Assembly (NCBI GenBank): GCA_017408395.1
Contig: JAFQUQ010000004.1
Span: 1 to 52,768, forward strand
Source of the DNA: Oscillospiraceae bacterium
Lineage (GTDB): Bacteria; Bacillota; Clostridia; Oscillospirales; Ruminococcaceae
Length of the DNA stretch: 52,768 nt
Reading direction: 5' to 3'
Shown here one piece after another: positions 1,111 to 28,773 of the stretch; the stretch's first letter is position 1; each line of letters begins with the position of its first letter. Both the position numbers and the translations under genes were made by a program. Below the pieces are notes generated by a model. It searched no databases. It worked only from the letters and a program-made list of their open reading frames with translations, and was not told the origin of the DNA.

Positions 1111-1920
1111 TAAAGTTTAGGTCAACCCTTTTCAAAGGGTTGCGGAATCCAAAGGCAGAGCCTTTGGCGAGGTTAAGGGCGAGGAGCCCTTAGCAAACCC
1201 AAGCAAAACAAAAGCGCAATTCAGCGTAAAAGGCAAGGATGAGAAAAGTAAATCTTTTCAATAATCTTAAGTGGTACGTCAATCTGAATTGCGCTTAAGT
1301 TTTAAACGGTATAAACAAAATTAACCCTCATCCTGCAAAGAAAAAGAGCGTAAGCGGTTTTTTCTTTGTAGGATGACACCACTAATCAACTGTAAACCGT
1401 CTTCTGCAAATTTAATCTCTGCTATAAAAGAAAAGAGCGAAGCGTGTTTTCTTTTATAGCAGACACAGCGAAAAATGATTACAATGAGAAATTATCTGCG
1501 TCGATTATACAATGTGTAAATCAATTGCCTTCAAATACAAACTGTTATTTCAGTTTGTCACAGTAAAAAAGAAAAACGCTACGCTCTTTCTTTTTTGCTG
1601 TGAGGTTTTGTTTGCGGAGGACGGTCTGTTTTTTATTTTGCCTGTCGTTACAAATCGAAAAACGCTTACGCTTGTTTTCGACTTGTAACGAGATTTTATT
1701 TTGCTTAACACAGTTAAAATTTTAGCGCAATTCAGATTAACGTACTACTTAAGATTATTGAAAAGATTTACTTTTCTCATATTTGGTTTTTACTCTGAAT
1801 TGCGCTTTCGTTTTGCTTTTTGCTTTGCTTGGGTTTGCTAAGGGCTCCTCGCCCTTAACCTCGCCAAAGGCTCTGCCTTTGGATTCCGCAAGCCTTTGAA
1901 AAGGCTTGACCTAAACTTTA
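1111..1920. repeat. Hairpin-array element, copy 1
   Basis: This is a quasi-palindromic, non-coding element bounded by TAAAGTTTAGGTCAA and its complement. Inside the ends each arm has three short hairpins and one 81-nt long hairpin flanked by GCGCAATTCAG/CTGAATTGCGC (1214-1294 and, inverted, 1725-1805). The core has four hairpins with oligo-purine stems: D 1329-1375, F 1418-1463, H 1559-1602, J 1646-1690. Their tips are GCGTAAGC, GCGAAGC and, read on the minus strand, GCGTAGC and GCGTAAGC. No credible ORF is present. This is the only copy not in a convergent junction; it lies between the divergent carD operon and hflX. Confidence 0.9.
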
Positions 1921-2019
1921 ATGTCGATTTTGTGCAGCTTTATCGGCAATCTGACTAGTCCATCCCATAAAATAATTACGCATTAAGCATTACGAATTAC
2001 GCATTATTAAAATTTTTAC

Positions 2020-2048
2020 TTGACAAATCGGCGAATATGGAGTATATT
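2020..2048 (+). promoter_or_regulatory. hflX leader promoter
   Basis: TTGACA and TATATT are separated by 17 bases. Transcription would start near 2055, giving an approximately 220-nt leader before hflX. Confidence 0.75.
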
Positions 2049-2095
2049 AAGCTTATGTTGTTTCAAACAGCAAATAATTTAAGGAGGCGGACAAA

Positions 2096-2164
2096 GTGTT
2101 CATTAAGTTAAGATCAGATTTTACAGCAGAATATTCAAACAAGGAAGTCCGTCTGTCATTTTAA
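2096..2164 (+). CDS. Putative hflX leader peptide (22 aa)
   Basis: A strong AAGGAGG site sits 6 bases before a GTG that opens a 22-codon ORF (starting MFIKLRSDFT, ending EVRLSF). It is followed after 36 bases by a terminator-like hairpin and then by hflX. The 3' part of the ORF contains GGAAG (2143-2147), which can pair with CTTCC of the terminator stem. It also contains GTCTGTCAT (2151-2159), a perfect complement of 2235-2243 downstream. This is the layout of a translation-controlled attenuator, as known for the Listeria HflXr gene. The peptide itself is probably only a sensor. Confidence 0.65.
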   Translation: MFIKLRSDFTAEYSNKEVRLSF

Positions 2165-2200
2165 GCCGAAGTATGGCATTTTAAGGCAATAAAGTTGTGT

Positions 2201-2224
2201 GCTTCCATAAGGGAAGCTTTTTTT
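2201..2224 (+). terminator. Attenuator hairpin upstream of hflX
   Basis: The stem GCTTCC/GGAAGC has a 5-nt loop and is followed directly by seven T residues, 51 bases before the hflX start and within its own transcript. Its position means it must be read through for hflX expression. Confidence 0.65.
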
Positions 2225-2275
2225 ATGCCCTCTTATGACAGACTGAACAGTACGGAATGTACGGAAAGGATTTAT

Positions 2276-3526
2276 ATGGAAATTATACAGACTAACGAAA
2301 TAAAACCGAAAGTTATCCTTGTCAGCGCTGATACGGGGGAATTTGACGCAGAGCGTTCAATGAAGGAACTGGAGGAGCTTGCTTCAACGGCAGGCGTAGA
2401 GGTGGTTGCAACGGTCACACAGAAACGCCCCACATATGACACCGCAACCTGCATAGGCTCAGGCCGTCTTGACGAGCTTGGGGACGAGGCAAGGGCAATG
2501 GGGATAGACCTTGTTATCTTTGACCACGAGCTTACGGCAAACCAGACCCGTAACATTGAGCGTATACTTGATATAAGAGTAATCGACAGAACAACTCTCA
2601 TTCTCGACATTTTCGCTCAGCGTGCACGTACCAAGGAAGGCCGTATCCAGGTTGAGCTTGCACAGCAGAAATACCGTCTTGCACATCTTGCGGGAAAGGG
2701 TATCGAGCTTTCACGTTTAGGCGGAGGTATCGGCACAAGAGGTCCGGGTGAGTCGAAGCTTGAAACGGATAAGCGTCACATAAGACGCCGTATCGAAATT
2801 CTCACCGATGAGCTTAAGGAGCTTGAAAAACGCCGTGAATTCCACCGTGTACGCCGCAGAAAGGATAACGTTATCGTAGGTGCGATAGTTGGCTATACAA
2901 ACGTAGGTAAATCTACTTTAATGAATGCGCTGACCGATGCAGGGGTGCTTGCGGAAGATAAGCTTTTCGCAACCCTTGACACGACCTCCCGTGCCCTTGA
3001 ACTCCCCGACGGAAGAAGCGTCCTGCTTGTTGACACGGTAGGTCTTGTACGCAGACTGCCCCACAATCTTGTTGAAGCTTTCAAAAGCACCCTCGAAGAA
3101 GCCGCAAACGCTGATATTATCATAAATCTTATTGACATCAGCGCCGATGACGGCTACGAACAGGCACAGGTCACAGCCGAACTGCTTAAAGAGCTTGGCT
3201 GTGAGGGCATACCGATGGTAAATGTTCTCAACAAGGCGGATAAGCTTCCCGAAGGTGCAAACATTCACTGTGACGGCTCAACGGTGCTCATTTCCGCAAA
3301 AAAGCGTGAGGGACTTGACCGCCTGCTGGATTGCATCGCACGAAATCTTCCCGAAACCGCAAGAAGGGGCACTTTTGTTATACCTTACGACAAATCATCA
3401 CTGCTTAATACTATCCGTATAGACGGCAAGATTTTCACCGAGGAGTACACCGCCGAGGGTACTCTCATTGACGCACTGGTTGACCTTAAAATTTACCATA
3501 TGGTAGAGCAGTATGAGCAGGCTTAA
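2276..3526 (+). CDS. hflX: GTPase HflX
   Basis: HflX is a ribosome-associated GTPase that splits stalled 70S ribosomes. The 416-aa protein shows the HflX N-terminal domain, the glycine-rich motif GGGIGTRGPGESKLE (about 149-163), a coiled-coil of about 165-195, the Walker A GYTNVGKST (about 206-214), DTVGLVRRLPH (switch II region) and NKAD. ATG 2276 is chosen because GGAAAGGAT precedes it and family proteins start at about this point; the frame remains open to 2195 but that part overlaps the attenuator. Expression appears controlled by the leader peptide and attenuator at 2096-2224. Homology is clear. Confidence 0.95.
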   Translation: MEIIQTNEIKPKVILVSADTGEFDAERSMKELEELASTAGVEVVATVTQKRPTYDTATCIGSGRLDELGDEARAMGIDLVIFDHELTANQTRNIERILDIRVIDRTTLILDIFAQRARTKEGRIQVELAQQKYRLAHLAGKGIELSRLGGGIGTRGPGESKLETDKRHIRRRIEILTDELKELEKRREFHRVRRRKDNVIVGAIVGYTNVGKSTLMNALTDAGVLAEDKLFATLDTTSRALELPDGRSVLLVDTVGLVRRLPHNLVEAFKSTLEEAANADIIINLIDISADDGYEQAQVTAELLKELGCEGIPMVNVLNKADKLPEGANIHCDGSTVLISAKKREGLDRLLDCIARNLPETARRGTFVIPYDKSSLLNTIRIDGKIFTEEYTAEGTLIDALVDLKIYHMVEQYEQA

Positions 3527-3582
3527 GCTGTCCCGATATTGATACAATTTAAACTGTAAAACCGCTTTTTTGCAAATAACTA

Positions 3583-3611
3583 TTGACGTTTCAATCGTAA
3601 AATGGTAAAAT
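3583..3611 (+). promoter_or_regulatory. recA promoter
   Basis: TTGACG and TAAAAT are separated by 17 bases, about 50 bases before recA. A GTTCG half site lies downstream near 3627, but no full CGAACN4GTTCG LexA box is present. Confidence 0.65.
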
Positions 3612-3661
3612 AATATCAACACAGATGTTCGATTTTTAAGTGAAGGGATTGATTTTTACAA

Positions 3662-4888
3662 ATGGCACCAAAGAAAACCGCTGAAAAAGAAGCAGTTGTA
3701 AAGCTTACAAACGAAGAGGACAAGAAGAAAGCCCTTGATGCGGCTATCCATCATATAGAAAAGCAGTACGGCAAGGGTGCGGTAATGCGCCTTGGTCAGG
3801 CAGTCGATTTTCAGGTTGACGCTGTCCCGACAGGCTCAATGACTCTTGATATGGCACTGGGTATAGGCGGCGTTCCCAAGGGACGTATCGTTGAGATATA
3901 CGGACCCGAAAGCTCAGGTAAAACCACCGTTGCTCTCCAGATCGTTGCCGAGTCGCAGAAGGCAGGCGGCATTGCGGCATTCATCGACGTTGAACACGCT
4001 CTCGACCCTGTTTATGCAAAGGCTCTGGGTGTAAACATCGACGATATGCTGGTATCACAGCCTGACAGCGGCGAGCAGGCTCTTGAAATTGCAGAAGCTC
4101 TCGTAAGATCGGGCGCTATCGACTGTATCGTAATCGACTCCGTTGCGGCTATGGTAACAAAGGCTGAAATTGACGGTGAAATGGGCGACACTCACGTTGG
4201 TCTGCTTGCAAGACTTATGTCACAGGCAATGCGTAAGCTTACATCGGTTATTTCAAAATCAAACTGCGTTGCCATTTTCATCAATCAGGTACGTGAAAAG
4301 ATCGGCGTTATCTACGGCAACCCCGAAACCACCACAGGCGGACGTGCGCTTAAATTTTACAGCTCCGTAAGAATTGAAGTGCGCAAGGGCGAGGCTATCA
4401 AGGTAAACGGCGAAACTATCGGCGCAAGAACAAAGTGCAAGGTCGTAAAGAACAAGGTTGCACCGCCGTTCAAGGAATGTGAATTTGACCTTTACTTCGG
4501 CAAGGGTATTTCAAGAACGGGCGAGGTAGTTGACCTTGCGGTTGAATATGAGATAATCCAGAAAAGCGGTGCGTGGTTCTCCTATGACGGAAATAAAATC
4601 GGTCAGGGACGTGACAACACCAAGGAGTACCTGGCTTCAAATCCCGACATTATGAAGGAGATCGAAGAAAAGATCAAGATAAGATGTCAGGAAGAAATCG
4701 AAAAGAACAAGAAAAATGCCAAGTCCAAGGCTTCAAAGGCAGAGGACGAGGTTGCGGCAGCAGCGGCAGAGGCGGCAGCTGAAGCTTCGGAAGAAGCTCC
4801 CGCACCGAAGAAGCTCAAGCCTGTAAAGTCGGTGAACGTTGAAATCGACGCCGAGGACGACTTTGAAGAATTCACACCCGTCAAGTAA
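3662..4888 (+). CDS. recA: Recombinase RecA
   Basis: RecA is the ATP-dependent strand-exchange protein and SOS coprotease. The 408-aa sequence has Walker [10 protein letters not shown] (81-89), the Walker B region [11 protein letters not shown], loop L1 around [20 protein letters not shown] and loop L2 around [25 protein letters not shown]. It is longer than the usual 340-360 aa because of a low-complexity tail after about 340. The tail is a Lys/Ala/Glu-rich stretch and then an acidic end ([15 protein letters not shown]), consistent with the regulatory acidic tail of RecA. It is followed after 2 bases by recX, so the two form an operon. Confidence 0.98.
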
Positions 4889-4890
4889 TT

Positions 4891-5508
4891 ATGCTGATAA
4901 GATCCGTTGAAAAATTCAAAGGCTCTACCGTCTGCATTGAAATTGAAGGCTATGACAACGTTTATGTAAACGAAAAAATTGCGGCGGAATACTGCTTAAG
5001 AGCAGGGATGAACATTCCCGAAAGTGCCGTTGAGGAAATCACGGCGGCTGACCTTGAAAGGAAGGCAAAGGAGCGTGCAATGTATCTGCTGACGGACAGG
5101 GACTATTGCTTTGTGGAGCTTTACCGTAAGCTGGAAAAAAGCTATTCCCACGAAATAAGCCTGTCGGTGTGCAGAAAAATGGCGGAGCTTGGGTTTGTGA
5201 ATGATACAGCCTATGCGGAAAAATATGCACGTCAGCTTTTTGAGGTAAAGAAGTTCGGCTTTTACAGAGCGAAGCAGGAAATGAAGCGTAGAGGGCTGCC
5301 GGATAATGTCATAGAAAATGCGGTTGAGCCGTATCTTGACAGGGAGAGCACAGCGGAAAGGCTGGAAGAGCTGATAGATAAGAAGTATGCACGGTATCTT
5401 ACGGATGAAAAGGGCGTGCAGAAAGTGAAATCCGCACTTGTGAGGATGGGATACAGCTATGACAGCATAAACTCCGCATTGAAAGCATACATCACAGACG
5501 AATACTGA
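4891..5508 (+). CDS. recX: Regulatory protein RecX
   Basis: RecX binds RecA filaments and modulates their activity. The 205-aa protein has the typical three-helix repeats, for example YLLTDRDYCFVELYRKL, ICRKMAELGFVNDTAYAEKYARQ-like segments and EMKRRGLPDNVIENAV. An approximately 50-residue N-terminal extension (IRSVEKFKGSTVCIEI) matches the N-terminal region common in Firmicute RecX. It begins 2 bases after recA, with the RBS embedded in the recA 3' end. Its TGA stop lies 3 bases before hairpin-array copy 2. Confidence 0.92.
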   Translation: MLIRSVEKFKGSTVCIEIEGYDNVYVNEKIAAEYCLRAGMNIPESAVEEITAADLERKAKERAMYLLTDRDYCFVELYRKLEKSYSHEISLSVCRKMAELGFVNDTAYAEKYARQLFEVKKFGFYRAKQEMKRRGLPDNVIENAVEPYLDRESTAERLEELIDKKYARYLTDEKGVQKVKSALVRMGYSYDSINSALKAYITDEY

Positions 5509-5511
5509 CAA

Positions 5512-6317
5512 TAAAGTTTAGGTCAAGCCTTTTCAAAGGGTTGCGGAATCCAAAGGCAGAGCCTTTGGCGAGGTTAAGGGCGAGGAGCCCTTAGCAAACC
5601 CAAGCAAAACAAAGAAAAAAACAAAGCGCAATTCAGCGTAAAAGGCAAAGATAAGTAAAACTATCAGGTTTCTACTATCTTTAAAAGCCCGTCAATCTGA
5701 ATTGCGCTTAAATTTTTATCGTATTAAACAAAATCATCCCTCATCAGATAAAGAAAAAGAGCGGAAGCGGTTTTTTCTTTATCTGATGACACACCCAATC
5801 AACTGCAAACAAACCCTTGCAAACCCAATCTCTACTATAAAAGAAAAGAGCGAAGCGTGTTTTCTTTTATAGTAGACACAGCAAAAAAGAATTACGTTAA
5901 GGAAATACAGATAGCTATTATACAATATGTAGATATTTTCGGGGAAACGAATTGTTATTTCAGCTTGTCACAGCAAAAAAGAAATGTCGCTGCGCTCTTT
6001 CTTTTTTACTGTGAGATTTTATTTGCAGGGGACGGTTTATGCTTTTATTTGATTTGTCGTTACAAATCGAAACCGCTTACGCTTGTTTTCGATTTGCAAC
6101 GAGGTTTTATTTTGCTTAAACAGTTAAAATTTTAGCGCAATTCAGACTAATGTACCACCAAAGATTACGAAGATATGTTTATTTTCTCATCTTTTGGGGT
6201 TATGCTGAATTGCGCTTTGGTTTTGCTTAGACTTGCTAAGGGCTTTGCCCTTAACCCACAAGGGCTCTGCCCCTTGACCCCGCAAGCCTTTTGAAAAAGG
6301 CTTGACCTAAAACTTTA
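5512..6317. repeat. Hairpin-array element, copy 2
   Basis: It has the same order of modules as copy 1: arm hairpins, long GCGCAATTCAG hairpin, D, F, H, J, inverted long hairpin, arm. Stem D (5742-5788) uses CATCAGAT/ATCTGATG where copies 1 and 3 use CATCCT(G/A)C/(G/C)..AGGATG-type pairs, so both sides have changed together. Its tip is GCGGAAGC. The tip of H on the minus strand is GCGCAGC. It fills the junction of convergent recX and the MaoC-type gene, and its right terminus supplies the TAA stop of the latter. An open frame across 5857-6135 is a by-product of the repeat. Confidence 0.9.
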
Positions 6318-6749
6318 ATATTGCCCTCTGCGTTTTACCACGGCTTCGGTGACGCTTGTGAAAACCAGTGTGCCATCCTGATTTACGGTATTGATTGTAA
6401 GCTCTACGATGCCATTTCTTGCATTTCTCTCCGTAAGCTTTGATATGGTAAGCGTTCCCGTGAGGGTATCGCCTGCAAAAACAGGCTTGAACCACTCGAT
6501 TTTTGTGGATTTGCCTGCGATAAGCTCTTCGCCGAAAAGGTCAACCTCAAGATATTTTGCCCAGACCGCCATTGCAGACATAACCCCCGGGGCGATAAGC
6601 TGTCCGAAGGGAGTGGAACGGGCGTATTCCTCGTCGGTATGGAGGGGAATATTGTCATATTTACGTGCAAAATCCATCATTTCCTCCTTGTCGATAACGG
6701 CAGGGGGGATTTTTATTGTGTCGTTGAGTTTAAAATCGTCAAAGTACAT
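6315..6749 (-). CDS. MaoC/hot-dog fold dehydratase family protein
   Basis: The 144-aa protein has a MaoC-like hydratase hot-dog fold. The signature is DNIPLHTDEEYARSTPFGQLIAPG, containing the Asp and His used by (R)-enoyl-CoA hydratases, followed by GKSTKIEWFKPVFAGDTL. Members hydrate or dehydrate acyl thioesters or act as 3-hydroxyacyl-ACP dehydratase-like proteins; the substrate here cannot be read from sequence. AAGGATGG precedes the ATG. The last codon and stop (QY then TAA) run into the terminus of hairpin-array copy 2, so the C-terminus was probably shaped by the insertion. Confidence 0.85.
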   Translation of the reverse strand: MYFDDFKLNDTIKIPPAVIDKEEMMDFARKYDNIPLHTDEEYARSTPFGQLIAPGVMSAMAVWAKYLEVDLFGEELIAGKSTKIEWFKPVFAGDTLTGTLTISKLTERNARNGIVELTINTVNQDGTLVFTSVTEAVVKRRGQY

Positions 6750-6795
6750 TTTTTACCATCCTTATCTGTTTTAAACGGCAGGTGCCGCTTTAATT

Positions 6796-6824
6796 AATAT
6801 ACTTCCGCAGGCAGGATTTGTCAA
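6796..6824 (-). promoter_or_regulatory. Promoter of the MaoC-type gene
   Basis: On the minus strand TTGACA and TATATT are 17 bases apart. It is back to back with the rfbB promoter at 6831-6860, with only 6 bases between the two -35 boxes. Confidence 0.7.
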
Positions 6825-6830
6825 GCAGGA

Positions 6831-6860
6831 TTGACAGAAGCCGCAGAAAAATGTTAAAAT
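6831..6860 (+). promoter_or_regulatory. rfbB promoter
   Basis: TTGACA and TAAAAT are 18 bases apart on the plus strand, 30 bases before the rfbB start. Confidence 0.6.
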
Positions 6861-6889
6861 TCAAGCAGTACATTCTGCGGAGGTTTGAG

Positions 6890-7843
6890 ATGAAATTACT
6901 TGTAACGGGCGGGGCAGGCTTTATCGGCTCCAATTTTATTTTACATATGCTTGAAAAATACGGCGGACTGCGGATAATCTGCCTTGACAAGCTGACCTAT
7001 GCGGCGGATGTTTCCTATCTTAAAAAGGTATGGGAAAAGGAAAATTTCCGCTTTGTGAAGGGGGACATCTGCGACAGGGAGGCGGTTTATTCTCTGTTTG
7101 CGGAGGAAATGCCTGACGCTGTTGTAAACTTTGCCGCAGAAAGCCACGTTGACCGTTCTATCGGCTCTCCCGAAATTTTTCTGCAAACAAACGTTACGGG
7201 TACGTCGGTGCTGATGGACGCCTGCTTAAAATACGGTACAGGCCGTTTTCATCAGATTTCCACCGATGAGGTCTACGGCGACCTGCCTGCTGACCGTCCC
7301 GACCTGCTTTTTACGGAGGAGTCGCCTTTGCGTCCCAGCTCTCCTTACAGCAGCTCAAAAGCGGCGGCGGATATGCTCGCTCTGGCTTATTTCCGCACCT
7401 ACGGTCTTCCCGTAACTATCACACGCTGCTCAAACAACTACGGTCCCTTCCAGCATACGGAAAAGCTTATCCCGATGGTGGTTTCAAAATGCCTTTCGGG
7501 GGAGAAGATACCCGTTTACGGCAGAGGTGAAAACGTCCGTGACTGGATACACGTTTCCGACCACTGCACCGCAATTGAAGCTGTGCTGTCAGAAGGCAGG
7601 ACAGGGCAGGTCTACAACGTGGGCGGAGGCTGTGAAATGCGGAATATCGACCTTGTAAAAATGATATGCTCTCTGACGGGCAGAGATGAAAGCCTGATAG
7701 AGTTCGTACCCGACAGAAAGGGACACGACCTGCGGTACGGCATTGATTACAGCAGGCTTGAAAAAGAAACGGGTTGGCATCCGCGGACAGACTTTGCCGA
7801 AGGATTGAAGAAAACCGTGGAGTATTATGAAAAAATACTGTAA
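6890..7843 (+). CDS. rfbB: dTDP-glucose 4,6-dehydratase
   Basis: This enzyme converts dTDP-glucose to dTDP-4-keto-6-deoxyglucose, the second step of dTDP-rhamnose and other deoxysugar pathways. It is an extended short-chain dehydrogenase of 317 aa: NAD-binding GGAGFIGSN (7-15), the family triad-like T125-D126-E127 (STDEVYGD), YSSSK (153-157) with catalytic Tyr and Lys, and RCSNNYGPFQHTEKLIP, which is diagnostic for RfbB. ATG 6890 is chosen over upstream starts because GGAGG precedes it and the Rossmann motif follows immediately. No other dTDP-rhamnose gene is adjacent, so the rest of the pathway must be elsewhere. Confidence 0.93.
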   Translation: MKLLVTGGAGFIGSNFILHMLEKYGGLRIICLDKLTYAADVSYLKKVWEKENFRFVKGDICDREAVYSLFAEEMPDAVVNFAAESHVDRSIGSPEIFLQTNVTGTSVLMDACLKYGTGRFHQISTDEVYGDLPADRPDLLFTEESPLRPSSPYSSSKAAADMLALAYFRTYGLPVTITRCSNNYGPFQHTEKLIPMVVSKCLSGEKIPVYGRGENVRDWIHVSDHCTAIEAVLSEGRTGQVYNVGGGCEMRNIDLVKMICSLTGRDESLIEFVPDRKGHDLRYGIDYSRLEKETGWHPRTDFAEGLKKTVEYYEKIL

Positions 7844-7849
7844 AAGCCG

Positions 7850-7878
7850 TTGTAATTTGCAATATTATGTGATATAAT
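7850..7878 (+). promoter_or_regulatory. Promoter of the rRNA methyltransferase gene
   Basis: TTGTAA and TATAAT are 17 bases apart, about 50 bases before the ORF at 7929. Confidence 0.65.
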
Positions 7879-7928
7879 TAATCTGTATACGACTGTTTAA
7901 ATGTAAATTTTAAAGGACGGCTGAATTT

Positions 7929-8837
7929 ATGGCATATAACAACAAGCCCCGTTACGGCGAAAAACGTTCGGATGAACGCAGAAACGGCGGCAGATACAAT
8001 AAAAATAACAGCAGACCTGACAGAAGACAGGACAGAGCCGAGAACGTCCGTGAGGAAGTTTACGGCAGGGAGGATGCCGATTTTTCCGAAAGCACTCCTG
8101 CTGACAGAGGTTACATCATCGGACGAAATCCTGTTATCGAGGCGCTCAAATCGGGCAAGCAGATAGACACCCTTTACGTAAACAGCGAGGCGGGGGGCAG
8201 CATAGGTCTTATCTGCCGTATGGCGAAGGAACGTGACGTTGTTGTAAAGCAGGTCAGCGAAACAAAGCTCAGCGCAATGGCTGACGGTGCTTCACATCAG
8301 GGCGTAATCGCTGTGGGAGCCTGTGCGGAATATGTTTCCGTGGAGGACATCCTCAACGTTTCAAAGGAAAAGGGCACCGACCCGTTTATTATAATCTGTG
8401 ACGAAATCGAAGACCCCCACAACCTCGGCGCAATTATCCGTACCGCAGAAGCGGCAGGCGCAGACGGTGTTATCATACCGAAACGCCGCAGTGCTTCACT
8501 CAATCAGACGGTTTACAAAACCTCCGCAGGTGCGGCAAGCTGGCTGCCCGTTGCGAGAGTTTCCAACATCCCTGCCGCCATTGACGAGCTTAAAAAGCAG
8601 GGTGTATGGGTTTACGGCACCGACGCCAAGGGCGAGGATTACACAAAGACCGATATGACAGGTCCCATTGCGCTTGTCATCGGCTCCGAGGGCTTCGGTA
8701 TGGGCAGGCTTGTTGAGGAAAAATGCGATTTCCTTGTAAGACTCCCTATGAACGGAAAGATAACCTCTCTTAATGCGTCCGTTGCGGCAGGCATATTTAT
8801 GTATGAAGCCGTAAGACAGAAGGCGCTTAAGAAATAG
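7929..8837 (+). CDS. rlmB: TrmH-family 23S rRNA 2'-O-methyltransferase (RlmB type)
   Basis: This is a SPOUT methyltransferase of 302 aa. Residues 1-60 are an Arg/Asn/Glu-rich disordered tail (RRNGGRYNKNNSRPDRRQD). It is followed by the substrate-binding domain (YIIGRNPVIEALKSGK) and the knotted catalytic domain with motif 1 NLGAIIRTAEAAGADGVI, motif 2 VIGSEGFGM and motif 3 LPMNGKITSLNASVAAGIF. RlmB methylates G2251 of 23S rRNA in E. coli; the exact nucleotide here is inferred from family only. AAAGGAC precedes the ATG. It is followed after 23 bases by the large membrane protein gene, suggesting co-transcription. Confidence 0.88.
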   Translation: MAYNNKPRYGEKRSDERRNGGRYNKNNSRPDRRQDRAENVREEVYGREDADFSESTPADRGYIIGRNPVIEALKSGKQIDTLYVNSEAGGSIGLICRMAKERDVVVKQVSETKLSAMADGASHQGVIAVGACAEYVSVEDILNVSKEKGTDPFIIICDEIEDPHNLGAIIRTAEAAGADGVIIPKRRSASLNQTVYKTSAGAASWLPVARVSNIPAAIDELKKQGVWVYGTDAKGEDYTKTDMTGPIALVIGSEGFGMGRLVEEKCDFLVRLPMNGKITSLNASVAAGIFMYEAVRQKALKK

Positions 8838-8860
8838 TAAGAGATAAGGAGCGAATAACT

Positions 8861-11656
8861 TTGGCTGACAAAGGTTACTCGATTGACGATATACTCAACG
8901 AATATTCGGGCAGTACGGGTTCGGGAAGCAAAGCTGACCTTGATGAGCTGCTGAACGATTACGGCTCTAAAAAATCAGGCGGCTTTTCAACGGATAAGGT
9001 CACTCTTCATAACACGGATATTTTCGAAAAGCCTGTGACCCCTGACCTGAGCGATATTAAAATTGAGCTTACGGGCAATATTCCTGCGCAGAAAAAGGAA
9101 AGCGAAGACAGCGGCTTTGAGAAAAAATACGAGCAGCTCAACGAAAAGGTCAACGCTATAAAGGAGCGCACAGAGGAAGAACGACAGGAGAAAAAGGCTC
9201 CTGCCGTGAAAAAGCCTGACCGCAGCTTCTCCGAGAAAATGGAGCAGGGCGTGGTTTATGAGGACGAAAAGAAGGAAAAGGAGTCCCTTGCCGACAGATT
9301 TACACGTCTTAAAAAGGGCGGAGAGCAGGAAAAACCACAGGAAAAGCCTGCCGAAGCTCCTGCACCGAAAAAGCCTGCAAAGGAAAACCCATTTGATAAG
9401 TACGAGGGAATTTCCGACGACGTACAGGCTGAAGAAAAGCCTGACCCGTTCAGCAGCGGCGTTATCAAAAAGGAAAAAAGCCTTGACGATATTCTGGCGG
9501 AATATGCACCCAGCGATACAAAGAAAAAACACAACAAGGACTATACCCAGCATAAGGGTCTGACGGGATTTTTCACAAGAATGCTCCCCGATGACCTTGC
9601 AAATCAGGGAAATACCGAGCTTATTGACGGTATGATGCGTATGAAGAAGGAGCGTATGTCCAGAACTCAGCACATATCTCCTATCGAGCGTAAATCCATT
9701 TCCGACATCGACCTTAATCTCGATGATAAAATCATCCCCGATACCGCACAGCTCAATATTGACAAGGAAAACAGCGAGCTTATCAAGCTTAACGAGCTTA
9801 AAGAACGCCGCAGCAAGAAAATCAAGGACTTCGTTCTCGTGGGCGACGAGGAAGAGATTGCGGAAGCTGAAGCCGAGGAAACACAGGGCGTTCAGCGTGA
9901 AATAGAGGACTTTGAAGCTTTCGAGGACGCTCCCTCTGTTGCGGCGGATATAGAACAGCTTAAAAATTCTCTTGTAATGCGTATGCTGGTGCTGCTCATA
10001 TGCTTCGGCGCAAGCGCTTACATTGCCATTGCAAACGATACGGGAAACCTCCCTATTCCTGAGCTTTTCAATAAAAAAACACAGGTCAACACATACCTGT
10101 TTGTAAACGCCATAATCGGTCTGCTGGCGGCATTTGCGTCATATAACGTAATATCCTGCGGACTTTCAAAGCTCATTTCGATGAAAGCGGACTGCGACTC
10201 CCTTTGTGCGGTTGCGGCTGTAACAAGCATTGCAAGCTCAATGATAATGTTTGCAAACCCTACCCTTGTGCAGTACAGTTTAGTCCATATCTACATCACG
10301 GCGGCAATATGTGCGCTGATGTTCAATACGGCAGGAAAGATGCTGATAGTGACCCGTACACAGCGAAGCTTCCGTTTTGTTTCGGGAGGAAGCGAAAAAT
10401 ACGCATTGTTTACGGTTGAGGATGAAGAAAAGGCACAGAATTTTACAAGAGGCGCTCTCCGTGATTTCCCTCGCCTTGCTTCAATGAGAAAGACGGAATT
10501 CCTGACGGACTTCCTTAAAACCGCCTACGCTTCCGACAGCACGGACAAGTTCTGCTGCCTGTTTACACCTATTGTAATTGTAGCGGCGCTTATAGTTGCA
10601 CTGCTTGCAGGCTTTACAGCAAACAACGATTTCGGTGCATCAAGCATTTATATAGGTCTGGCGGCGTTTGTGGGATGCGTTTCGATGTGCTCTGCATTTT
10701 CAATGATGCTGGTTGTAAATATGCCTATGGCAAAGGCGTCGAAGAAGAACGCCGAGTTCCACGGTGCCGTTATCGGCTACGACTGCATAGAGGAATTTGC
10801 CGATACCAACAGTATTCTTGTGGATGCGACACAGCTTTTCCCTCAGGGAAGCGTAAATCTTTCCGCAATCAAGGTTTTCTCCGATACGAGAATTGACGAG
10901 GCTATCGTTGAAGCGGCAAGCCTTACAAATCAGGCAGGCAGTATTTTAAAGAATATGTTCTACGATATAATCGCAGGCAAGACCGAGCTGCTCAACCCTG
11001 TTGAAAGCTATATTTTCGAGGACTCAATGGGACTTTGCGGCTGGATAAACAACAAGCGTGTGCTTCTTGGCAACCGTGAGCTTATGATAAATCACAGCAT
11101 AGAGGGCATACCATCCGTTGCAAAGGAGCAGGAGTACACCAAAAACGGACGCTCTGCGGTTTATCTTTCCATTTCGGGTGAGCTTTCCGCAATGTTCGTG
11201 GTTGAGCTTAAACCGTCCCTTGAAGTAAAGCAGGCGCTTGCAAATCTCCAGAAGCAGGAAATTTACACGGTGGTACGTTCCGTTGACTCCCTTGTCACAA
11301 TAAACCACCTGTCGGAGCTTTTTGATATTTCCCCTGAGTTCTTCAAGCTGCTTCCGTTCAGAAGCCACAAGGATTTCGACGAGGTCGTGACCTATCAGCC
11401 TAAACAGCACGCAACCGTTGCGTGTACGGGAAATTTTGCGGCGCTGTCCTCACTTGTTTTAAGCTGCCGCAATTTAAGAGGTACTATCTCAACGGGTATT
11501 GCAATTGAAGCTGTGGCAATACTGCTGGGCATTTTAATATGCCTTGCGATGGTAATTTTAAAATCCTTCGGTGAAATAACCGTTACTATGACGATCACCT
11601 ACAATCTTATTTTCACAGCGGTACTGCTGGTATTCCAGTTCTTCCGCAAAAATTAA
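8861..11656 (+). CDS. P-type-ATPase-like membrane protein with degenerate phosphorylation site
   Basis: This is a 931-aa protein starting at a TTG preceded by AAGGAG. Residues 1 to about 365 are hydrophilic, Lys/Glu/Pro-rich and probably disordered. They contain three copies of a short acidic motif: IDDILNEY (8-15), LDELLNDY (27-34) and LDDILAEY (208-215). Five or six hydrophobic segments follow. A cytoplasmic region then resembles the P- and N-domains of P1-type ATPases: SILVDATQLFPQG aligns with the DKTGT phosphorylation site (Asp655 kept, KTGT lost), then GWINNKRVLLGNREL and GRSAVYLSISGELSAMFVVEL. The hinge TGDN is not recognisable. Two C-terminal membrane segments complete the P-type order. 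It is probably a non-transporting relative; function unknown. Confidence 0.75.
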   Translation: MADKGYSIDDILNEYSGSTGSGSKADLDELLNDYGSKKSGGFSTDKVTLHNTDIFEKPVTPDLSDIKIELTGNIPAQKKESEDSGFEKKYEQLNEKVNAIKERTEEERQEKKAPAVKKPDRSFSEKMEQGVVYEDEKKEKESLADRFTRLKKGGEQEKPQEKPAEAPAPKKPAKENPFDKYEGISDDVQAEEKPDPFSSGVIKKEKSLDDILAEYAPSDTKKKHNKDYTQHKGLTGFFTRMLPDDLANQGNTELIDGMMRMKKERMSRTQHISPIERKSISDIDLNLDDKIIPDTAQLNIDKENSELIKLNELKERRSKKIKDFVLVGDEEEIAEAEAEETQGVQREIEDFEAFEDAPSVAADIEQLKNSLVMRMLVLLICFGASAYIAIANDTGNLPIPELFNKKTQVNTYLFVNAIIGLLAAFASYNVISCGLSKLISMKADCDSLCAVAAVTSIASSMIMFANPTLVQYSLVHIYITAAICALMFNTAGKMLIVTRTQRSFRFVSGGSEKYALFTVEDEEKAQNFTRGALRDFPRLASMRKTEFLTDFLKTAYASDSTDKFCCLFTPIVIVAALIVALLAGFTANNDFGASSIYIGLAAFVGCVSMCSAFSMMLVVNMPMAKASKKNAEFHGAVIGYDCIEEFADTNSILVDATQLFPQGSVNLSAIKVFSDTRIDEAIVEAASLTNQAGSILKNMFYDIIAGKTELLNPVESYIFEDSMGLCGWINNKRVLLGNRELMINHSIEGIPSVAKEQEYTKNGRSAVYLSISGELSAMFVVELKPSLEVKQALANLQKQEIYTVVRSVDSLVTINHLSELFDISPEFFKLLPFRSHKDFDEVVTYQPKQHATVACTGNFAALSSLVLSCRNLRGTISTGIAIEAVAILLGILICLAMVILKSFGEITVTMTITYNLIFTAVLLVFQFFRKN

Positions 11657-11667
11657 ATAAAAATAAT

Positions 11668-11700
11668 CTGCCGTATCTTACATTTCGTAAGGTACGGCAG
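11668..11700. terminator. Bidirectional intrinsic terminator
   Basis: A stem of about 14 bp (CTGCCGTAtCTTAC pairing with GTAAGgTACGGCAG) with a short loop lies between convergent genes. It has A-rich sequence on the left and TTGTTT on the right, so it can serve both strands. Confidence 0.8.
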
Positions 11701-11704
11701 TTGT

Positions 11705-14507: not shown

Positions 14508-15287
14508 ATGCTTGAATTCATAGACTCACACGCACATTACGACGATGAACGCTTTGACGAGGACAGGGAACAGCTTATACTTTCCCTTGCGGAAAAGGGC
14601 GTAAAGAATGTGGTAAATATAGGGTGTACCCTTGAACGCTCGGAGAAATCCATTGAGCTTGCGGAGAAGTATCCGTTTATGTATGCGGCGGTAGGAATTC
14701 ACCCGTCCGACGTGGGGGATACACCTGCGGATTATCTTGAAAAGCTGGAGAAGTGGGCGGAAAACCCGAAGGTGGTAGCTATCGGCGAGATAGGTCTTGA
14801 CTATCATTACGAAGATTACGACAGGGATCTGCAGATTAAATTTTTCGAGGAACAGCTTGACCTTGCGGAAAAGCTGGGTCTGCCCGTTGTGATACATTCC
14901 CGTAACGCAACCGAGGATACAATGAACATTTTACGCAGAAGGGGAAAAGTAAACGGCGTAATGCACTGCTTTTCGGGGTCTGCGGAAACAGCAAAGCAGG
15001 TGCTTGAGCTGGGAATGAACATCAGCTTTACGGGGGTGCTTACGTTTAAAAATGCGAAGAAAGCATTGGAAGCGTTGGCTGTCGTGCCGATGGAAAGGCT
15101 TATGCTTGAAACGGACTGTCCCTATATGGCACCTGAGCCGCATAGGGGAAAGAGATGTGACAGCTCGATGATAGTCAATGTTATAAATAAAATTGCGGAG
15201 GTCAAGTGCATTTCGCAGAAAGAAATTGCCGATATAACCGCCGAAAATACACGACGTCTTTTCTTTAAGATGGCAGATAAAGTTTAG
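14508..15287 (+). CDS. tatD: TatD-family metal-dependent DNase
   Basis: A 259-aa TIM-barrel metallohydrolase of the TatD family, which has 3'-5' exonuclease or DNA-repair activity. Metal ligands are visible: DSHAHYDD near the start (His8, His10), GEIGLDYHY (Glu), HSRNA (His), HCFSG (His) and ETDCPYMAPEPHRGKR (Asp). GTGAAAGGAAAA precedes the ATG. The C-terminus ends MADKV followed by a TAG that belongs to the terminal motif of hairpin-array copy 3 (AAAGTTTAG), so the last codons derive from the element. Confidence 0.92.
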   Translation: MLEFIDSHAHYDDERFDEDREQLILSLAEKGVKNVVNIGCTLERSEKSIELAEKYPFMYAAVGIHPSDVGDTPADYLEKLEKWAENPKVVAIGEIGLDYHYEDYDRDLQIKFFEEQLDLAEKLGLPVVIHSRNATEDTMNILRRRGKVNGVMHCFSGSAETAKQVLELGMNISFTGVLTFKNAKKALEALAVVPMERLMLETDCPYMAPEPHRGKRCDSSMIVNVINKIAEVKCISQKEIADITAENTRRLFFKMADKV

Positions 15288-16134
15288 GTCACCCGACACT
15301 AAAGTTTTAGGTCAAGCCTTTTTCAAAAGGCTTGCAGGGTTGAGGGGCAGAGCCCCCACAGGTTAAGGGCAGCGCCCTTAGCAAGTTTAAGCAAAACAAA
15401 AAGCAACACAAAGCCGCAATTCAGAGTAAAAACCAAAGGTTAAGAAAAGAGAGTCTTTTCAATAATCTTTGGTGGTATGTCAATCTGAATTGCGGCTAAA
15501 TTTTAAACGTTACAAACAAAACTAAACCTCATCCTACAAAGAAAAAGAGCGTAAGCGGTTTTTTCTTTGTGGGATGACACCACCAATCAACTGTAAACAA
15601 TCCCATACAAACTCAACCTCTGCTATAAAAGAAAAGAGCGAAGCGTGTTTTCTTTTATAGCAGACACAGCAAAAAATGATTACAATAAGAAATTATCTGC
15701 GTTGATTATACAATGTGTAAACCGATTGTCTGCAAATACAAACTGTTATTTCGGCTTGTCACAGCCAAAAAGAAATGTCGCTTCGCTCTTTCTTTTTGGC
15801 TGTGAGGTTTAATTTGCAGATAACGGTTTGTGATCTGGTCTGGCTTGTCGTTACAAATCGAAACCGCTTACGCTTGTTTTCGACTTGTAACGAGATTTTA
15901 TTTTGCTTAAAAAAGTTAAAAATTAAGCGCAATTCAGATTAATGTACCACTTAAGATTATTGAAAAGATTTACTTTTCTACTCTTTGGTTTTTACTCTGA
16001 ATTGCGCTTTAGTTTTGCTTAGGATTGCTAAGGGCTCCTCGCCCTTAACCTCGCAAGGGACGCTGTCCCTTTGAACCCTGCAACCCTTTGAAAAGGGTTG
16101 ACCTAAACTTTAATGTCGGGCGACCTAAACTTTA
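15278..16134. repeat. Hairpin-array element, copy 3 (doubled ends)
   Basis: Core D (15530-15576), F (15619-15664), H and J are in the same order as copies 1 and 2. The left long hairpin ends in GCCGCAATTCAG/CTGAATTGCGGC while the right one ends in GCGC/GCGC, so pairing is kept within each hairpin rather than between arms. Both ends carry the terminal TAAAGTTTAGGTC motif twice (left at 15278 and 15300, right ending at 16112 and 16134). The outermost copies provide the TAG stops of tatD and of the convergent MATE gene. Confidence 0.9.
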
Positions 16135-17510: not shown

Positions 17511-17636
17511 TTTAAACAGCAGACTCCTTTTTATTAACTCTCATTATTTCTTATAAATTTACATCACAATATATAAATATACAACTTTTTACACTTTTTT
17601 TCAAGGCTCAGATTTCACATAATATTTAAGCAAATC

Positions 17637-17665: not shown

Positions 17666-17687
17666 TGACATAAAAAGGAGGGGCTTT

Positions 17688-18383: not shown

Positions 18384-18389
18384 CGACAT

Positions 18390-19192
18390 TAAAGTTTAGG
18401 TCAAGCCCGACATTAAAGTTTTAGGTCAAGCCTTTTTCAAAAGGCTTGCGAGGTTAAGGGCGAGGAGCCCTTAGCAATCCTAAGCAAAACAAAAAGCAAA
18501 AAGGAAGCCGCAATTCAGCGTAAAATCCAAAGATGAGAATGAAAGATAATCTCAATAATCTTTGGTAGTACGTCAATCTGAATTGCGGCTAAATTCTTAC
18601 ATCTTTAAATAAAATAAAATCTCGTTACAAGTCGAAAACAAGCGTAAGCGGTTTCGATTTGTAACGACAAGCCAGACCAAATCACAAACAGACCTCTGCA
18701 AATTAAACCTCACAGCCAAAAAGAAAGAGCGAAGCGACATTTCTTTTTGACTGTGACAAGCTGAAATAACAGTTTGTATTTACAGACAACCAGTTTACAA
18801 ATTGTATAGTTAGCGTATGTAATTCCCCTACGTAATTCTTTTATAGCAGAGGGGGAGTTGGTACGGGATTGTTTACAGTTGATTGGTGGTGTCATCCCAC
18901 AAAGAAAAAACCGCTTACGCTCTTTTTCTTTGTAGGATGAGGGATGATTTTGATTATCACAGTTAAAATTTTAGCCGCAATTCAGATTGACATACCACCA
19001 AAGATTATTGAGATTATCTTTCATTCTCACCTTTGGTTTTTACTCTGAATTGCGGCTTTGTGTTGCTTTTTGTTTTGCTTAGGATTGCTAAGGGCGCTGC
19101 CCTTAACCCATAAGGGCTCCTCGCCCTTAACCTCGCAAGCCTTTTGAAAAAGGCTTGACCTAAAACTTTAGTGTCGGGCGATCTGAACTTTA
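18390..19192. repeat. Hairpin-array element, copy 4 (core inverted, F damaged)
   Basis: The arms match the other copies, but the core runs J-H-G-F-D, opposite to copies 1-3. Only one half of hairpin F remains (near 18832-18850). Both ends carry the terminal motif twice, the right outer one degenerate (GATCTGAACTTTA). The long hairpins use GCCGC/GCGGC ends, and the inner stem uses TGAGA/TCTCA instead of GAAAAG/CTTTTC, again with both sides changed. The outer right CTTTA supplies the TAA stop of the GH5-type gene. Confidence 0.9.
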
Positions 19193-20356
19193 CTTTCCAT
19201 TCGGATAGATTTTATCGGGGATGGTTTCTGCCATCTTGTTTGTTGCTGCTGCGGTCAGGTCAAATCTGTACCAGCCCGTTTCTTCGTCATCTCTCGGTTC
19301 CATCCACACCATTATGCCGTTCCAGCCGTTTTCGTGGGATTTGAGATATTTATCGGTTACGCTTATTCCGAGTGTACTTTCATCGTCATTCGGTGTTTCT
19401 CCGACTACGCACGGTTTTGTTCCGTCCATACCGTAATCTGTTGGTGTCTGGTCAAAAGGCATTCCGTATGTTGCCTTCATCCAGCCGTAATAATGCGGAC
19501 TGTAAAAATCAAGGTAGGCATTTTCGTTGCCTGTGATTTCTTTTAAGAATTCGTCGGTAAGGTGGTTGCCGCTGTATTTGTCGGAGTTGTATTTCGGCAT
19601 ACCCATACCTACTGTTACCAAGGTATCGCAGTTTTCGTGGATGGTTGCGGCACATTTACCGAAGAAGTAAGCAAGGTGTTCAAGTCCTATCTTGCCGCAT
19701 TCCGCATTTTCCGTAACCCAGTCAGGCTCGTTCATAATGTCGATGGAGAAAAGGTACTCGTTTGCGCCGTAGCGTGTACAGAATTCCTTGACGTACATTT
19801 CAGCGTAAAGGTCGGTGTATTCCTTGGTCTGGAGAAGTGTACGCCACTGGTCGTAGCCGCCGTTAGGCTCTTTGAAGTGGTCGAATGAAGTGAGGGTAGC
19901 CATAATGTAGACCTGATGCTTTTCAGCAAGTGCAAAAAGCTTGTCAAGGTCTGTCCAGTGGGCGTCGTTTACAGCCTGAGGCTCGCCTGTTGATTTAAGA
20001 CGGACGATACTTTCGCCGTTGCAGTTGACCCATATTCTTGTGGAGTTGATGTTGTTTTCAGCAAGAAGCGCAAAGGTTTTATCCCAGTGCTCCTCGTCCA
20101 TCTGTCCCGAAAAGTCGTTCCATTTGTGCCAGGGGGTGTTTACGCCGTTTGACCACCATTCCTTTCCGTTCACCATAAACTTTGTGCCGTCTACCGTAAT
20201 TCGTGCGGATACGGCTTCGGGCGCTTCGGTTACGGTTGCAGTAGTTTCGCTGACGGTCTGTTCAGCTTCGGGAGCGTCCTTTCCGCAGGCTGTTACAGAA
20301 AGCGCAAGCATTGCGGAAAGTGCAATTGCAGATATTTTTTTAAAATTTAAAAGCAT
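19190..20356 (-). CDS. GH5-type glycoside hydrolase lipoprotein (mannanase/cellulase-like)
   Basis: A 388-aa clan GH-A TIM-barrel enzyme. The signal peptide has lipobox LSVTAC (Cys24), so it is membrane-anchored outside the cell, followed by a Thr/Glu linker of about 25-48. Barrel residues visible: TRIWVNC, DIMNEPDW with acid/base Glu210, YSPHYYGW with a conserved His, PCVVGETPN with nucleophile Glu320, and GIMVWMEPRDD. The overall pattern resembles GH5 beta-mannanases or related cellulases; specificity is not certain. AGGAGG precedes the ATG. The TAA stop is formed by the end of hairpin-array copy 4, giving a terminus of YPNGK. Confidence 0.82.
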   Translation of the reverse strand: MLLNFKKISAIALSAMLALSVTACGKDAPEAEQTVSETTATVTEAPEAVSARITVDGTKFMVNGKEWWSNGVNTPWHKWNDFSGQMDEEHWDKTFALLAENNINSTRIWVNCNGESIVRLKSTGEPQAVNDAHWTDLDKLFALAEKHQVYIMATLTSFDHFKEPNGGYDQWRTLLQTKEYTDLYAEMYVKEFCTRYGANEYLFSIDIMNEPDWVTENAECGKIGLEHLAYFFGKCAATIHENCDTLVTVGMGMPKYNSDKYSGNHLTDEFLKEITGNENAYLDFYSPHYYGWMKATYGMPFDQTPTDYGMDGTKPCVVGETPNDDESTLGISVTDKYLKSHENGWNGIMVWMEPRDDEETGWYRFDLTAAATNKMAETIPDKIYPNGK

Positions 20357-27928: not shown

Positions 27929-28292
27929 CACGGACGATAAAGTTTTAGGTCAAGCCTTTTTCAAAATGGCTTGAAAGCAAACTGCGTTTGCTTGGGTTCA
28001 AAGGGACAGAGCCTTTGGTGGGTTAAGGGCAAAGCCCTTAGTAATTCCAAGCAAAACTAAAGCGCAATTCAGAGCAAAACCCAAAGGTTAAGAAAAGTTA
28101 ATCTTTTCAATAATCTTAAATGGTACGTTAATCTGAATTGCGCTTAAATTTTACCCTGTTAAGCAATACCTACCCTTGATTTTGATTGAAAATAAGCGAA
28201 AGCGTTTTTCAATCAAAATCAACAAAGCCAATATAAAAAGGAACTATTATCCACTATACCCATAATCCCCCTCGTATCCCATATATTTTGCA

Positions 28293-28321
28293 TTGAAAAC
28301 AAGGAAAAATTCTGTTATAAT
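28293..28321 (+). promoter_or_regulatory. Promoter of the 20-aa peptide gene
   Basis: TTGAAA and TATAAT are 17 bases apart, with a TG extending the -10 (TGTTATAAT). Confidence 0.75.
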
Positions 28322-28372
28322 TAAGACAATCCCGGGAGAAAAATACAAAACAGCGAAAGGAGAATAAAAATT

Positions 28373-28435
28373 ATGTGCAACATTTTCACATCCCTTTGTG
28401 AGGCTCTTAAGTCATTTTTCTCATTCTGTGCGTAA
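28373..28435 (+). CDS. 20-aa Cys/Phe-rich peptide
   Basis: The ORF encodes MCNIFTSLCEALKSFFSFCA. AAAGGAG lies 10 bases before the ATG, a clear promoter is 52 bases upstream and a strong intrinsic terminator begins 15 bases after the stop, so this is a complete unit. The peptide is hydrophobic, has three cysteines (2, 9, 19) and could form an amphipathic helix with one Glu and one Lys. I do not recognise it. Possibilities are a small membrane peptide or type I toxin, a signalling peptide, or a peptide made by an RNA with another role. It sits inside hairpin-array copy 5, unlike any other copy here. Confidence 0.65.
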   Translation: MCNIFTSLCEALKSFFSFCA

Positions 28436-28450
28436 TTGAGTGACATACAT

Positions 28451-28487
28451 AAAGCCTGCCGCAAATTTACTGCGGCAGGCTTTTTTT
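28451..28487 (+). terminator. Intrinsic terminator of the peptide gene
   Basis: AAAGCCTGCCGCA pairs with TGCGGCAGGCTTT around a 7-nt loop and ends in a T7 run. Confidence 0.9.
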
Positions 28488-28773
28488 AGCTGTAATCTTT
28501 ATTTGTTTTGTCGTTGCAAATCAGAAACGCTTACGCTTTTTCCGATTTGCAACGAGGGTTTGTTTAGTTTAAAACGGATAAAAATTAAGCGCAATTCAGA
28601 TTAACGTACCACTTAAGATTATTGAAAAGATTAACTTTTCTTAACCTTTGGGGGTTACTCTGAATTGCGCTTTAGTGTTGCTTTTGGTTTTGCTTGGGTT
28701 TGCTAAGGGCGCTGCCCTTAACCTTGCCAAAGGGACATTGCCCCTTTGGAATCCCTGAGCCGCCTTTGGCGGA

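What the first reader, a model, noticed from the sequence alone, without database searches (positions are those of the whole stretch)
1111..28772. A dispersed family of approximately 800-bp hairpin-array elements, five copies in 52 kb
Copies at 1111-1920, 5512-6317, 15278-16134, 18390-19192 and 27938-28772 share one plan. The ends are TAAAGTTTAGGTCAAGCC; each arm has about three short hairpins and a long hairpin bounded by (GC)GCAATTCAG (81 nt in copy 1), and the core has four purine-stem hairpins in copies 1-3. The whole is a quasi-palindrome with no ORF except in copy 5. Size, modular folding and density exceed ordinary REP/BIME or simple MITE elements known to me. It could be a non-autonomous mobile element, a structured RNA or a DNA-topology element; which of these is inference.
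Basis: partly seen in the sequence, partly recalled or inferred. Interest (0 to 1): 0.85.

Follow-up and report, generated by a model that had tools for sequence, protein, structure and literature searches.

The report
Palindromic hairpin arrays replacing gene terminators
A few related gut bacteria carry dozens of roughly 800-base, two-sided arrays of RNA-like hairpins that start right at the stop codons of genes, often between two genes that face each other, where related genomes often have an ordinary transcription terminator.

Summary
The five copies are real and belong to a larger family: many full and partial copies in the same 1.85-Mb genome (98 matches, both strands counted) and the same plan in two congeners. 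A copy is two arms back to back: tip hairpins, an ~80-nt long hairpin, and core hairpins CTC-stem-AGCGNRAGCG-stem-GAC whose stems covary strongly. Arms are anchored at gene 3' ends: 29 of 41 arm ends lie -9 to +31 nt from an in-sense stop. In ~355 kb of a congener, elements or fragments lie in 9 of 39 convergent, 11 of 195 tandem and 1 of 39 divergent gaps. Several orthologous gene ends carry a plain terminator instead. I found no target duplication, no recent full-length copies among those fetched, and no matching ends on the transposases examined. Best reading: a slowly spreading non-autonomous repeat that took the place of intrinsic terminators and serves as structured 3' UTR, probably with outward-facing terminators. 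Transcription, termination and mobilising enzyme are inferred. No Rfam match; seven paper searches listed no description. Nearest kinds: REP/BIME and MITE.

The parts
1111..1920 (.). Copy 1, full two-armed element; lies between divergent genes (CarD-type gene and HflX-type GTPase)
5512..6317 (.). Copy 2, full element between convergent recX-type gene (stop 5508) and MaoC-type gene (stop within the element end)
15278..16134 (.). Copy 3, full element with nested double ends on both sides, between convergent TatD-type and MatE-type genes
18390..19192 (.). Copy 4, element with nested ends and three core hairpins, between convergent RibD-type and GH2-like genes
27938..28772 (.). Copy 5, element whose core is mostly replaced by other sequence; between convergent alpha-amylase-type and GH94 genes; right tip differs
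1214..1294 (+). Long hairpin of the left arm of copy 1 (81 nt, GCGCAATTCAG...CTGAATTGCGC)
   Evidence: fold
1725..1805 (-). Long hairpin of the right arm of copy 1 (81 nt)
   Evidence: fold
1328..1377 (+). Core hairpin, copy 1, left arm
1417..1464 (+). Core hairpin, copy 1, left arm
1557..1604 (-). Core hairpin, copy 1, right arm
1644..1692 (-). Core hairpin, copy 1, right arm
5741..5790 (+). Core hairpin, copy 2 (others: 5830-5877 +, 5967-6015 -, 6056-6103 -)
15529..15578 (+). Core hairpin, copy 3 (others: 15618-15665 +, 15758-15806 -, 15847-15894 -)
18621..18668 (+). Core hairpin, copy 4 (others: 18709-18757 +, 18891-18940 -)
28510..28556 (-). Core hairpin, copy 5 (a partial one at 28185-28213 +)
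28373..28435 (+). 20-codon ORF in the core of copy 5, with promoter-like and Shine-Dalgarno-like sequence upstream and a terminator-like hairpin downstream

Best explanation
These are copies of a modular, non-autonomous repeat found in three of the six congeneric genomes sampled. The unit is one arm: gene stop codon, tip hairpins, long hairpin, then one or more core hairpins. The full element is two such arms back to back. An arm usually sits directly behind a stop codon, in the place where other gene ends, or the orthologous gene end in a relative, often carry an intrinsic terminator. In most cases no room for another terminator is left between stop and arm, so the flanking transcript must run into its arm, which is then the 3' UTR (inferred from position; no RNA data). 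Core hairpins are kept by selection on folding of a single strand, probably the one in which the neighbouring gene reads in. Reading on, the polymerase meets hairpins followed by T-rich sequence in the far half, which I take to be the terminator; if so, an arm carries the terminator that stops the opposite transcript before it invades the neighbouring gene. Spread was by an unidentified enzyme or by recombination. Arms and hairpins are exchanged or duplicated as modules. Shown: anatomy, covariation, position, differing occupancy. Inferred: transcription, termination, mobility mechanism.
For: Position: 29 of 41 arm ends (four nested ends counted twice) lie -9..+31 nt from an in-sense stop; 11 face a gene start, 8 of them at 69-416 nt and 3 at -24..+1 nt (probably miscalled genes); one is at a contig end. 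In G005, of element ends (elements >=250 bp) 22 of 29 on the stop side are within 35 nt and 14 of 15 on the start side at 84 nt or more. Convergent bias 9/39 v 11/195 tandem (3 of the 11 are fragments of 50 bp or less) v 1/39 divergent. Terminator-like sites in 15 of 23 element-free convergent gaps v 14 of 92 random stretches, and in 2 of 18 stop-to-element leaders. By eye, at least seven orthologous ends show a plain terminator instead of the element. Covariation: 89.4% of cells paired v 73.4% shuffled; score 0.454 v 0.194, and 0.09-0.17 when slid. G-U v A-C cells 22:4 in the own genome, 24:4 in G005. Terminator-like sites in the far half, 28 of 28 in 12 own elements. Modules: among 15 own loci the three stretches of >=150 nt at >=90% identity are two arms and one core piece; a one-armed element has five tandem ~82-nt core units.
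Against: No transcriptome. Only 6 of the 12 own elements have a far-half terminator-like site in both directions; the other 6 in one direction only. In ten G005 and one G002 entries 24 sites are far, 8 near; without two elements entered twice, 21 and 6 by my count. The consensus scan of window 1000-20000 found 25 sites v 21.9 expected, only 2 inside elements. Counting distinct (position, type) pairs, G-U v A-C is only 12:6, and the long hairpin folds better in the opposite direction in G005 (38 of 46), possibly a composition effect. At one filled G005 gene end (L104) a terminator-like hairpin remains before the arm, and several orthologous ends without the element show no terminator but a close same-strand gene. 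Copy 1 lies between divergent genes. Mobility: no target duplication, no recent copies, no enzyme. Site sharing (2 in both, 2 own only, 0 G005 only, 20 neither) fits slow vertical inheritance too.
Confidence: 0.45

Rival explanations
1. A MITE-like transposon without host function. The hairpins are recognised as folded single-stranded DNA by an unseen transposase, and insertions survive best just behind stop codons between convergent genes.
For: Inverted ends, many copies in one genome, differing occupancy of orthologous gene ends, core hairpins in 3 of 41 genomes. The apex accepts GNA and GNNA loops, which I recall as very stable DNA mini-hairpins; the strand asymmetry fits ssDNA as well as RNA.
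Against: No target duplication; no near-identical full-length copies among those fetched; no match to PF01797, PF05598 or PF01609 in the 71%-complete own genome and no matching ends at the 17 PF05598/PF01609 loci of congeners. Chance survival does not easily explain ends within ~30 nt of stops, often on both sides, with no terminator between in most cases.
Confidence: 0.27
2. An immobile, ancient 3' UTR regulatory RNA: a host protein or RNase binds the repeated AGCGNRAGCG hairpins and controls mRNA stability; the copies are kept alike by gene conversion.
For: Strong covariation with conserved apex and flanks, about 24% divergence among copies with structure kept, shared sites in two species.
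Against: The ten window genes checked have no common function; no core hairpins found in three congeners; a number of orthologues do without it.
Confidence: 0.16
3. A DNA-topology or nucleoid element that works as a double-stranded cruciform.
For: Large inverted repeats between convergent genes, where positive supercoils collect (general knowledge).
Against: Arm-arm complementarity is hardly maintained (78% within v 76% between copies); one-armed elements exist; stem mismatches are strand-asymmetric.
Confidence: 0.07

Closest known systems
REP/BIME elements with RAYT (TnpA_REP) transposases
   Same: Intergenic palindromes, many copies, arranged in composite structures (starts of abstracts of PMC2817692 and PMC12306157 seen in the listing, of PMC3733652; the rest recalled).
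   Different: Arms of several different hairpins, ~800 bp in all, mostly anchored within ~30 nt of stop codons; no Y1 transposase match in G000 or G002, only weak ones in G003 and G005, and clear ones in G001 and G004, which have no core-hairpin match.
MITEs
   Same: Non-coding, inverted ends, many copies.
   Different: No target duplication, no matching ends on the transposases examined, no recent copies among those fetched, multi-hairpin modular interior.
IS1272 and the inverted repeat-replacing mode of transposition (PMC5678879, passages read)
   Same: There the target inverted repeat is replaced; the paper also discusses a 25-bp duplication at one end, recalling the 22-24 nt nested ends here.
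   Different: No PF05598 match in G000; those of congeners lack these ends. No empty site of the same gene pair was found, so replacement is inferred.
BOX/RUP repeats of Streptococcus pneumoniae (PMC3049150, listing and start of abstract only)
   Same: Small interspersed repeat families of a Firmicute; modular build recalled.
   Different: Other lineage; sequences and position at stop codons were not compared.

Membership tests
REP/BIME with RAYT | 20-40 bp palindromes dispersed in intergenic DNA | tested here: inconclusive
   Dispersed hairpins yes, but as parts of an ~800-bp ordered array
REP/BIME with RAYT | RAYT (Y1 transposase) in the genome | tested here: not met
   PF01797: no match in G000 (71% complete) and G002 (81%), weak in G003 and G005, clear in G001 and G004 which lack core hairpins
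MITE | Terminal inverted repeats | tested here: met
MITE | Target site duplication | tested here: not met
   Mean longest shared flank word 3.6 v 3.6 in swapped pairs, 11 elements
MITE | Autonomous partner with the same ends | tested here: inconclusive
   Only PF01797, PF05598 and PF01609 were searched; the 17 PF05598/PF01609 loci (some overlapping) show no matching ends; the PF01797 loci were not checked for ends
IS1272-type stem-loop replacement | Target inverted repeat lost at the filled site | tested here: inconclusive
   Terminators sit at several orthologous gene ends and in only 2 of 18 leaders beside elements, but no empty site with both flanks
IS1272-type stem-loop replacement | IS1182-family transposase (sought as PF05598) | tested here: not met
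   0 matches in G000 and G002; matches in G001, G004, G005 without these ends
Known structured RNA (Rfam 15) | Match above gathering score | tested here: not met
   0 matches in the window
Intrinsic terminator | GC-rich stem followed by a U-tract | tested here: inconclusive
   Far-half sites in at least one direction in 12 of 12 own elements, in both directions in 6 (home-made score); consensus scan gives only 2 sites inside elements
Intrinsic terminator | Ends transcription in vivo | not testable with these tools
   No RNA data

The most novel reading that the evidence does not exclude
A two-headed mobile 3'-end cassette: a selfish or domesticated repeat whose niche is the bidirectional terminator between convergent genes. 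It replaces the terminator, often supplies the stop codon at its tip (7 of 29 stop-side ends), gives each neighbour a covarying hairpin-array 3' UTR and pays its way with outward-facing terminators.
Probability: 0.32. Interest if true: 0.75.

Novelty: new variant of a known kind. Interest (0 to 1): 0.57.

Why it matters
If true, a repeat family colonises transcription terminators themselves, so that dozens of unrelated genes share a structured, possibly mobile mRNA 3' end. That would let one test directly whether a dispersed repeat can take over termination at many genes, and which protein or enzyme reads the conserved AGCGNRAGCG hairpins. Parts of the related element B, in most cases including the tip hairpins shared with these elements, occur far more widely (16 of 61 genomes, 12 of 56 genera), so the recruitment of a common short repeat into a large element could be traced.

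Tried and rejected
Rfam: nothing. Phage records with copy 1, and IMG/VR with the long-hairpin pattern: nothing, so no sign of phage carriage. PF01797, PF05598 and PF01609: none in the own genome; no matching ends at the 17 PF05598/PF01609 loci. Other transposase families and reverse transcriptases were not searched. Target duplication: none. Inversion between elements as the reason for different convergent partners: dropped, because convergent partners were conserved in 0 of 6 cases without elements too (0 of 20 in all). Search for recent full-length copies to map ends: none among the fetched elements. Orientation test by folding energy of the long hairpin: the first run mixed both orientations; the corrected run gave the opposite direction in G005 (38 of 46) and nothing clear in the own genome (14 v 8), so I do not rest on it. 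Tip hairpins fold better in the gene-sense direction in 24 of 24 arms, without a composition control. G-U v A-C with gapped stem alignment: own 16:2, G005 28:4, G002 1:0; many of the G005 cells are one inherited change. Gene-pair synteny among the loci first fetched: none. One search stopped with an error after printing the small ORF; the rest was repeated.

Limits: genes were called by a greedy longest-ORF script, not a trained caller. The own-genome loci were chosen because they match copy 1, and the G002 and most 8-kb G005 loci because they hold the long hairpin. The G005 stretches come from contigs picked because they had a match; the G004 stretches from three contigs that had one. The covariance model was built from 31 own, 5 G005 and 1 G002 hairpins, so diverged forms elsewhere may be missed. 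The terminators at orthologous ends were judged by eye.

Full report
WHAT IS THERE. The window is one whole contig (C25) of a 1.85-Mb, 61-contig, 71%-complete genome. All five copies exist. Copy 1 used as a query gives 98 matches in the same genome, from full copies (the best at 83% identity) to single arms and tips; because the element is palindromic many places match on both strands. The pattern GCGCAATTCAS-N45-75-STGAATTGCGC hits 97 stretches in 84,980 species genomes; of the 80 listed, 67 are in these two genomes, 2 in another Ruminococcus MAG, 1 in a goat-rectum Ruminococcus MAG and 10 in scattered unrelated bacteria. IMG/VR has none.

ANATOMY. Reading from a gene into the element, an arm has tip hairpins, then an A-rich linker (in the own genome), then the long hairpin, then core hairpins. 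The tip hairpins have interchangeable variants such as CAAAGG-CAGAG-CCTTTG and CAAGGGGA-CAGCG-TCCCCTG. Core hairpins read CTC-stem-AGCGNRAGCG-stem-GAC, with some variation at the apex. The other arm is the same in inverse orientation. Between the innermost core hairpins is a variable centre. Arms of different copies differ by about 24%. Among 15 own loci, three stretches reach 90% identity over 150 nt: two are single arms shared by different copies, one is a piece of core. One G005 element is one-armed with five tandem core units of about 82 nt. So arms and hairpins, rather than the 800-bp palindrome, seem to be the units of change.

STRUCTURE IS SELECTED. Among 36 distinct core hairpins of the own genome, the 12 outermost pair positions show up to four Watson-Crick types each. 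On a covariance-model alignment (59 rows, 49 distinct, 520 cells, a few weak matches included), 89.4% of cells pair, against 73.4% in shuffles; the covariation score is 0.454 against 0.194, with 0 of 500 shuffles as high, and 0.09-0.17 with slid partners. That alignment was fitted to the structure and so leans towards it; the register count was not. Opposites that are not Watson-Crick are G-U rather than A-C when read from gene to centre: 22 v 4 cells in the own genome (3 other) and 24 v 4 in G005 (16 other); as distinct position-type events 12 v 6. This points to folding of one strand, RNA or ssDNA, rather than a double-stranded cruciform. The events are few and copies are related, so this is suggestive only.

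POSITION. Of 41 arm ends in the own-genome loci, 29 follow an in-sense stop codon by -9 to +31 nt, 11 face a gene start and one a contig end; four nested ends are counted twice. Flanking genes in the window are unrelated: recX, MaoC, TatD, MatE, RibD-type, GH2-like, alpha-amylase, GH94, HflX and CarD types. In about 355 kb of G005 (contigs picked because they held a match), elements or fragments lie in 9 of 39 convergent, 11 of 195 tandem and 1 of 39 divergent gaps; three of the tandem ones are fragments of 50 bp or less. Convergent gaps with an element measure 312-914 nt, those without one 88 nt at the median. The window itself has two convergent gaps of ~45 nt without an element (11656/11705 and 21750/21795), each with a plain terminator-like hairpin.

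TERMINATORS REPLACED. In 23 element-free convergent gaps of G005, 15 have a terminator-like site near a stop, against 14 of 92 random stretches; in the 18 leaders between stop and element 2 have one, and 14 of the 18 leaders are 35 nt or shorter. Orthologous gene ends printed show the element in one species and, judged by eye, a plain terminator in another: the window's GH94 gene against L172; own L035 against G005 L123; own L022 against G004 L150; G005 L049 and L081 against the own genome; G005 L179 against G004 L163; G002 L011 against G005 L121. Against this, the filled G005 end in L104 keeps a terminator-like hairpin before the arm, and at several ends without the element a same-strand gene follows closely and no terminator is seen. 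Tallies, with the element (or element B) within 60 nt in the first species, and element / none / contig end in the second: own to G005 4/5/0; own to G004 1/4/0; own to G002 2/3/0; G005 to own 4/5/0; G005 to G004 1/9/0; G005 to G002 1/2/1; G002 to own 2/0/2; G002 to G005 1/3/0; G002 to G004 0/2/0; G004 to own 1/0/0; G004 to G005 1/0/0. Many of these loci were fetched because they hold an element. In the G005 stretches, own-genome orthologues give 2 in both, 2 own only, 0 G005 only, 20 neither. Some sites are thus probably older than the split of the species.

WHERE TRANSCRIPTS COULD END. With a simple hairpin-plus-T-tail score, all 28 candidate sites in 12 own elements (both strands) lie in the far half, most of them at the core or long hairpin of the opposite arm; one is the terminator of the small ORF in copy 5. 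Only 6 elements have such a site in both directions, 6 in one. In ten G005 and one G002 entries, 24 are far and 8 near; without two G005 elements entered twice, 21 and 6 (my count). The stricter consensus scan of window 1000-20000 finds 25 sites against 21.9 expected, 2 of them inside elements. I read this as outward-facing terminators for the opposite transcript. It is inference, and the weakest part of the model.

MOBILITY. For: copy number, narrow distribution (core hairpins: 52 in G000, 72 in G005, 12 in G002, 0 in the other 38 of 41 genomes, including congeners G001, G003 and G004, with a model built from the first three), and differing occupancy. Against: no target duplication, no recent copies among those fetched, no PF01797, PF05598 or PF01609 match in the own genome and no matching ends at the PF05598/PF01609 loci of congeners. 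In IS1272 the target inverted repeat is replaced and a 25-bp end duplication is discussed (PMC5678879, passages); this mode would fit the nested 22-24 nt ends and the lost terminators here, but its enzyme was not found.

RELATION TO KNOWN THINGS. It looks most like REP/BIME or MITE repeats, but fails the enzyme or duplication tests made here. Seven paper searches listed no description of it by title or abstract; passages of only one paper were read. I call it a new variant of a known kind. Parts of element B, which shares the tip hairpins, occur in 16 of 61 genomes; in G023, G031 and G042 only its other part matches.

Noticed in passing
window 1-148 and 52621-52768; L045 about 1395-1660: A second repeat (element B, ~270 bp, ends GTCGAAAAAGTTGCAC) shares the tip hairpins. 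In the copies read, its ends lie beside terminator hairpins of neighbouring genes. It sits at many contig ends (73 matches in the genome, short palindromic ones included), and parts of it match in 16 of 61 genomes of 12 genera.
   Followed up: partly
window 28373-28435: 20-codon ORF (MCNIFTSLCEALKSFFSFCA) with promoter-like and Shine-Dalgarno-like sequence and its own terminator-like hairpin inside the core of copy 5; no similar peptide in the other loci fetched.
   Followed up: partly
G005 loci L169 35-202, L174 8593-8759, L182 874-1041, L176 8687-8850; L171 4120-4352 and L178 6371-6604: Other short repeats of ~165 and ~232 bp, about 91-99% identical, in the congener.
   Followed up: no
G002 and G004 gene ends, e.g. 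L071, L096, L160: Runs like AATTCGGAATGCGGAATTCGGAATT directly behind stop codons, a further 3'-end repeat in the genus.
   Followed up: no
window 38161-38310: Acidic tandem repeat (GAAGAAGACGTT units) inside the 607-codon ORF 36574-38397.
   Followed up: no
window 2097-2162: Short ORF behind a Shine-Dalgarno-like sequence just upstream of the HflX-type gene, possibly a leader peptide (read by eye).
   Followed up: no
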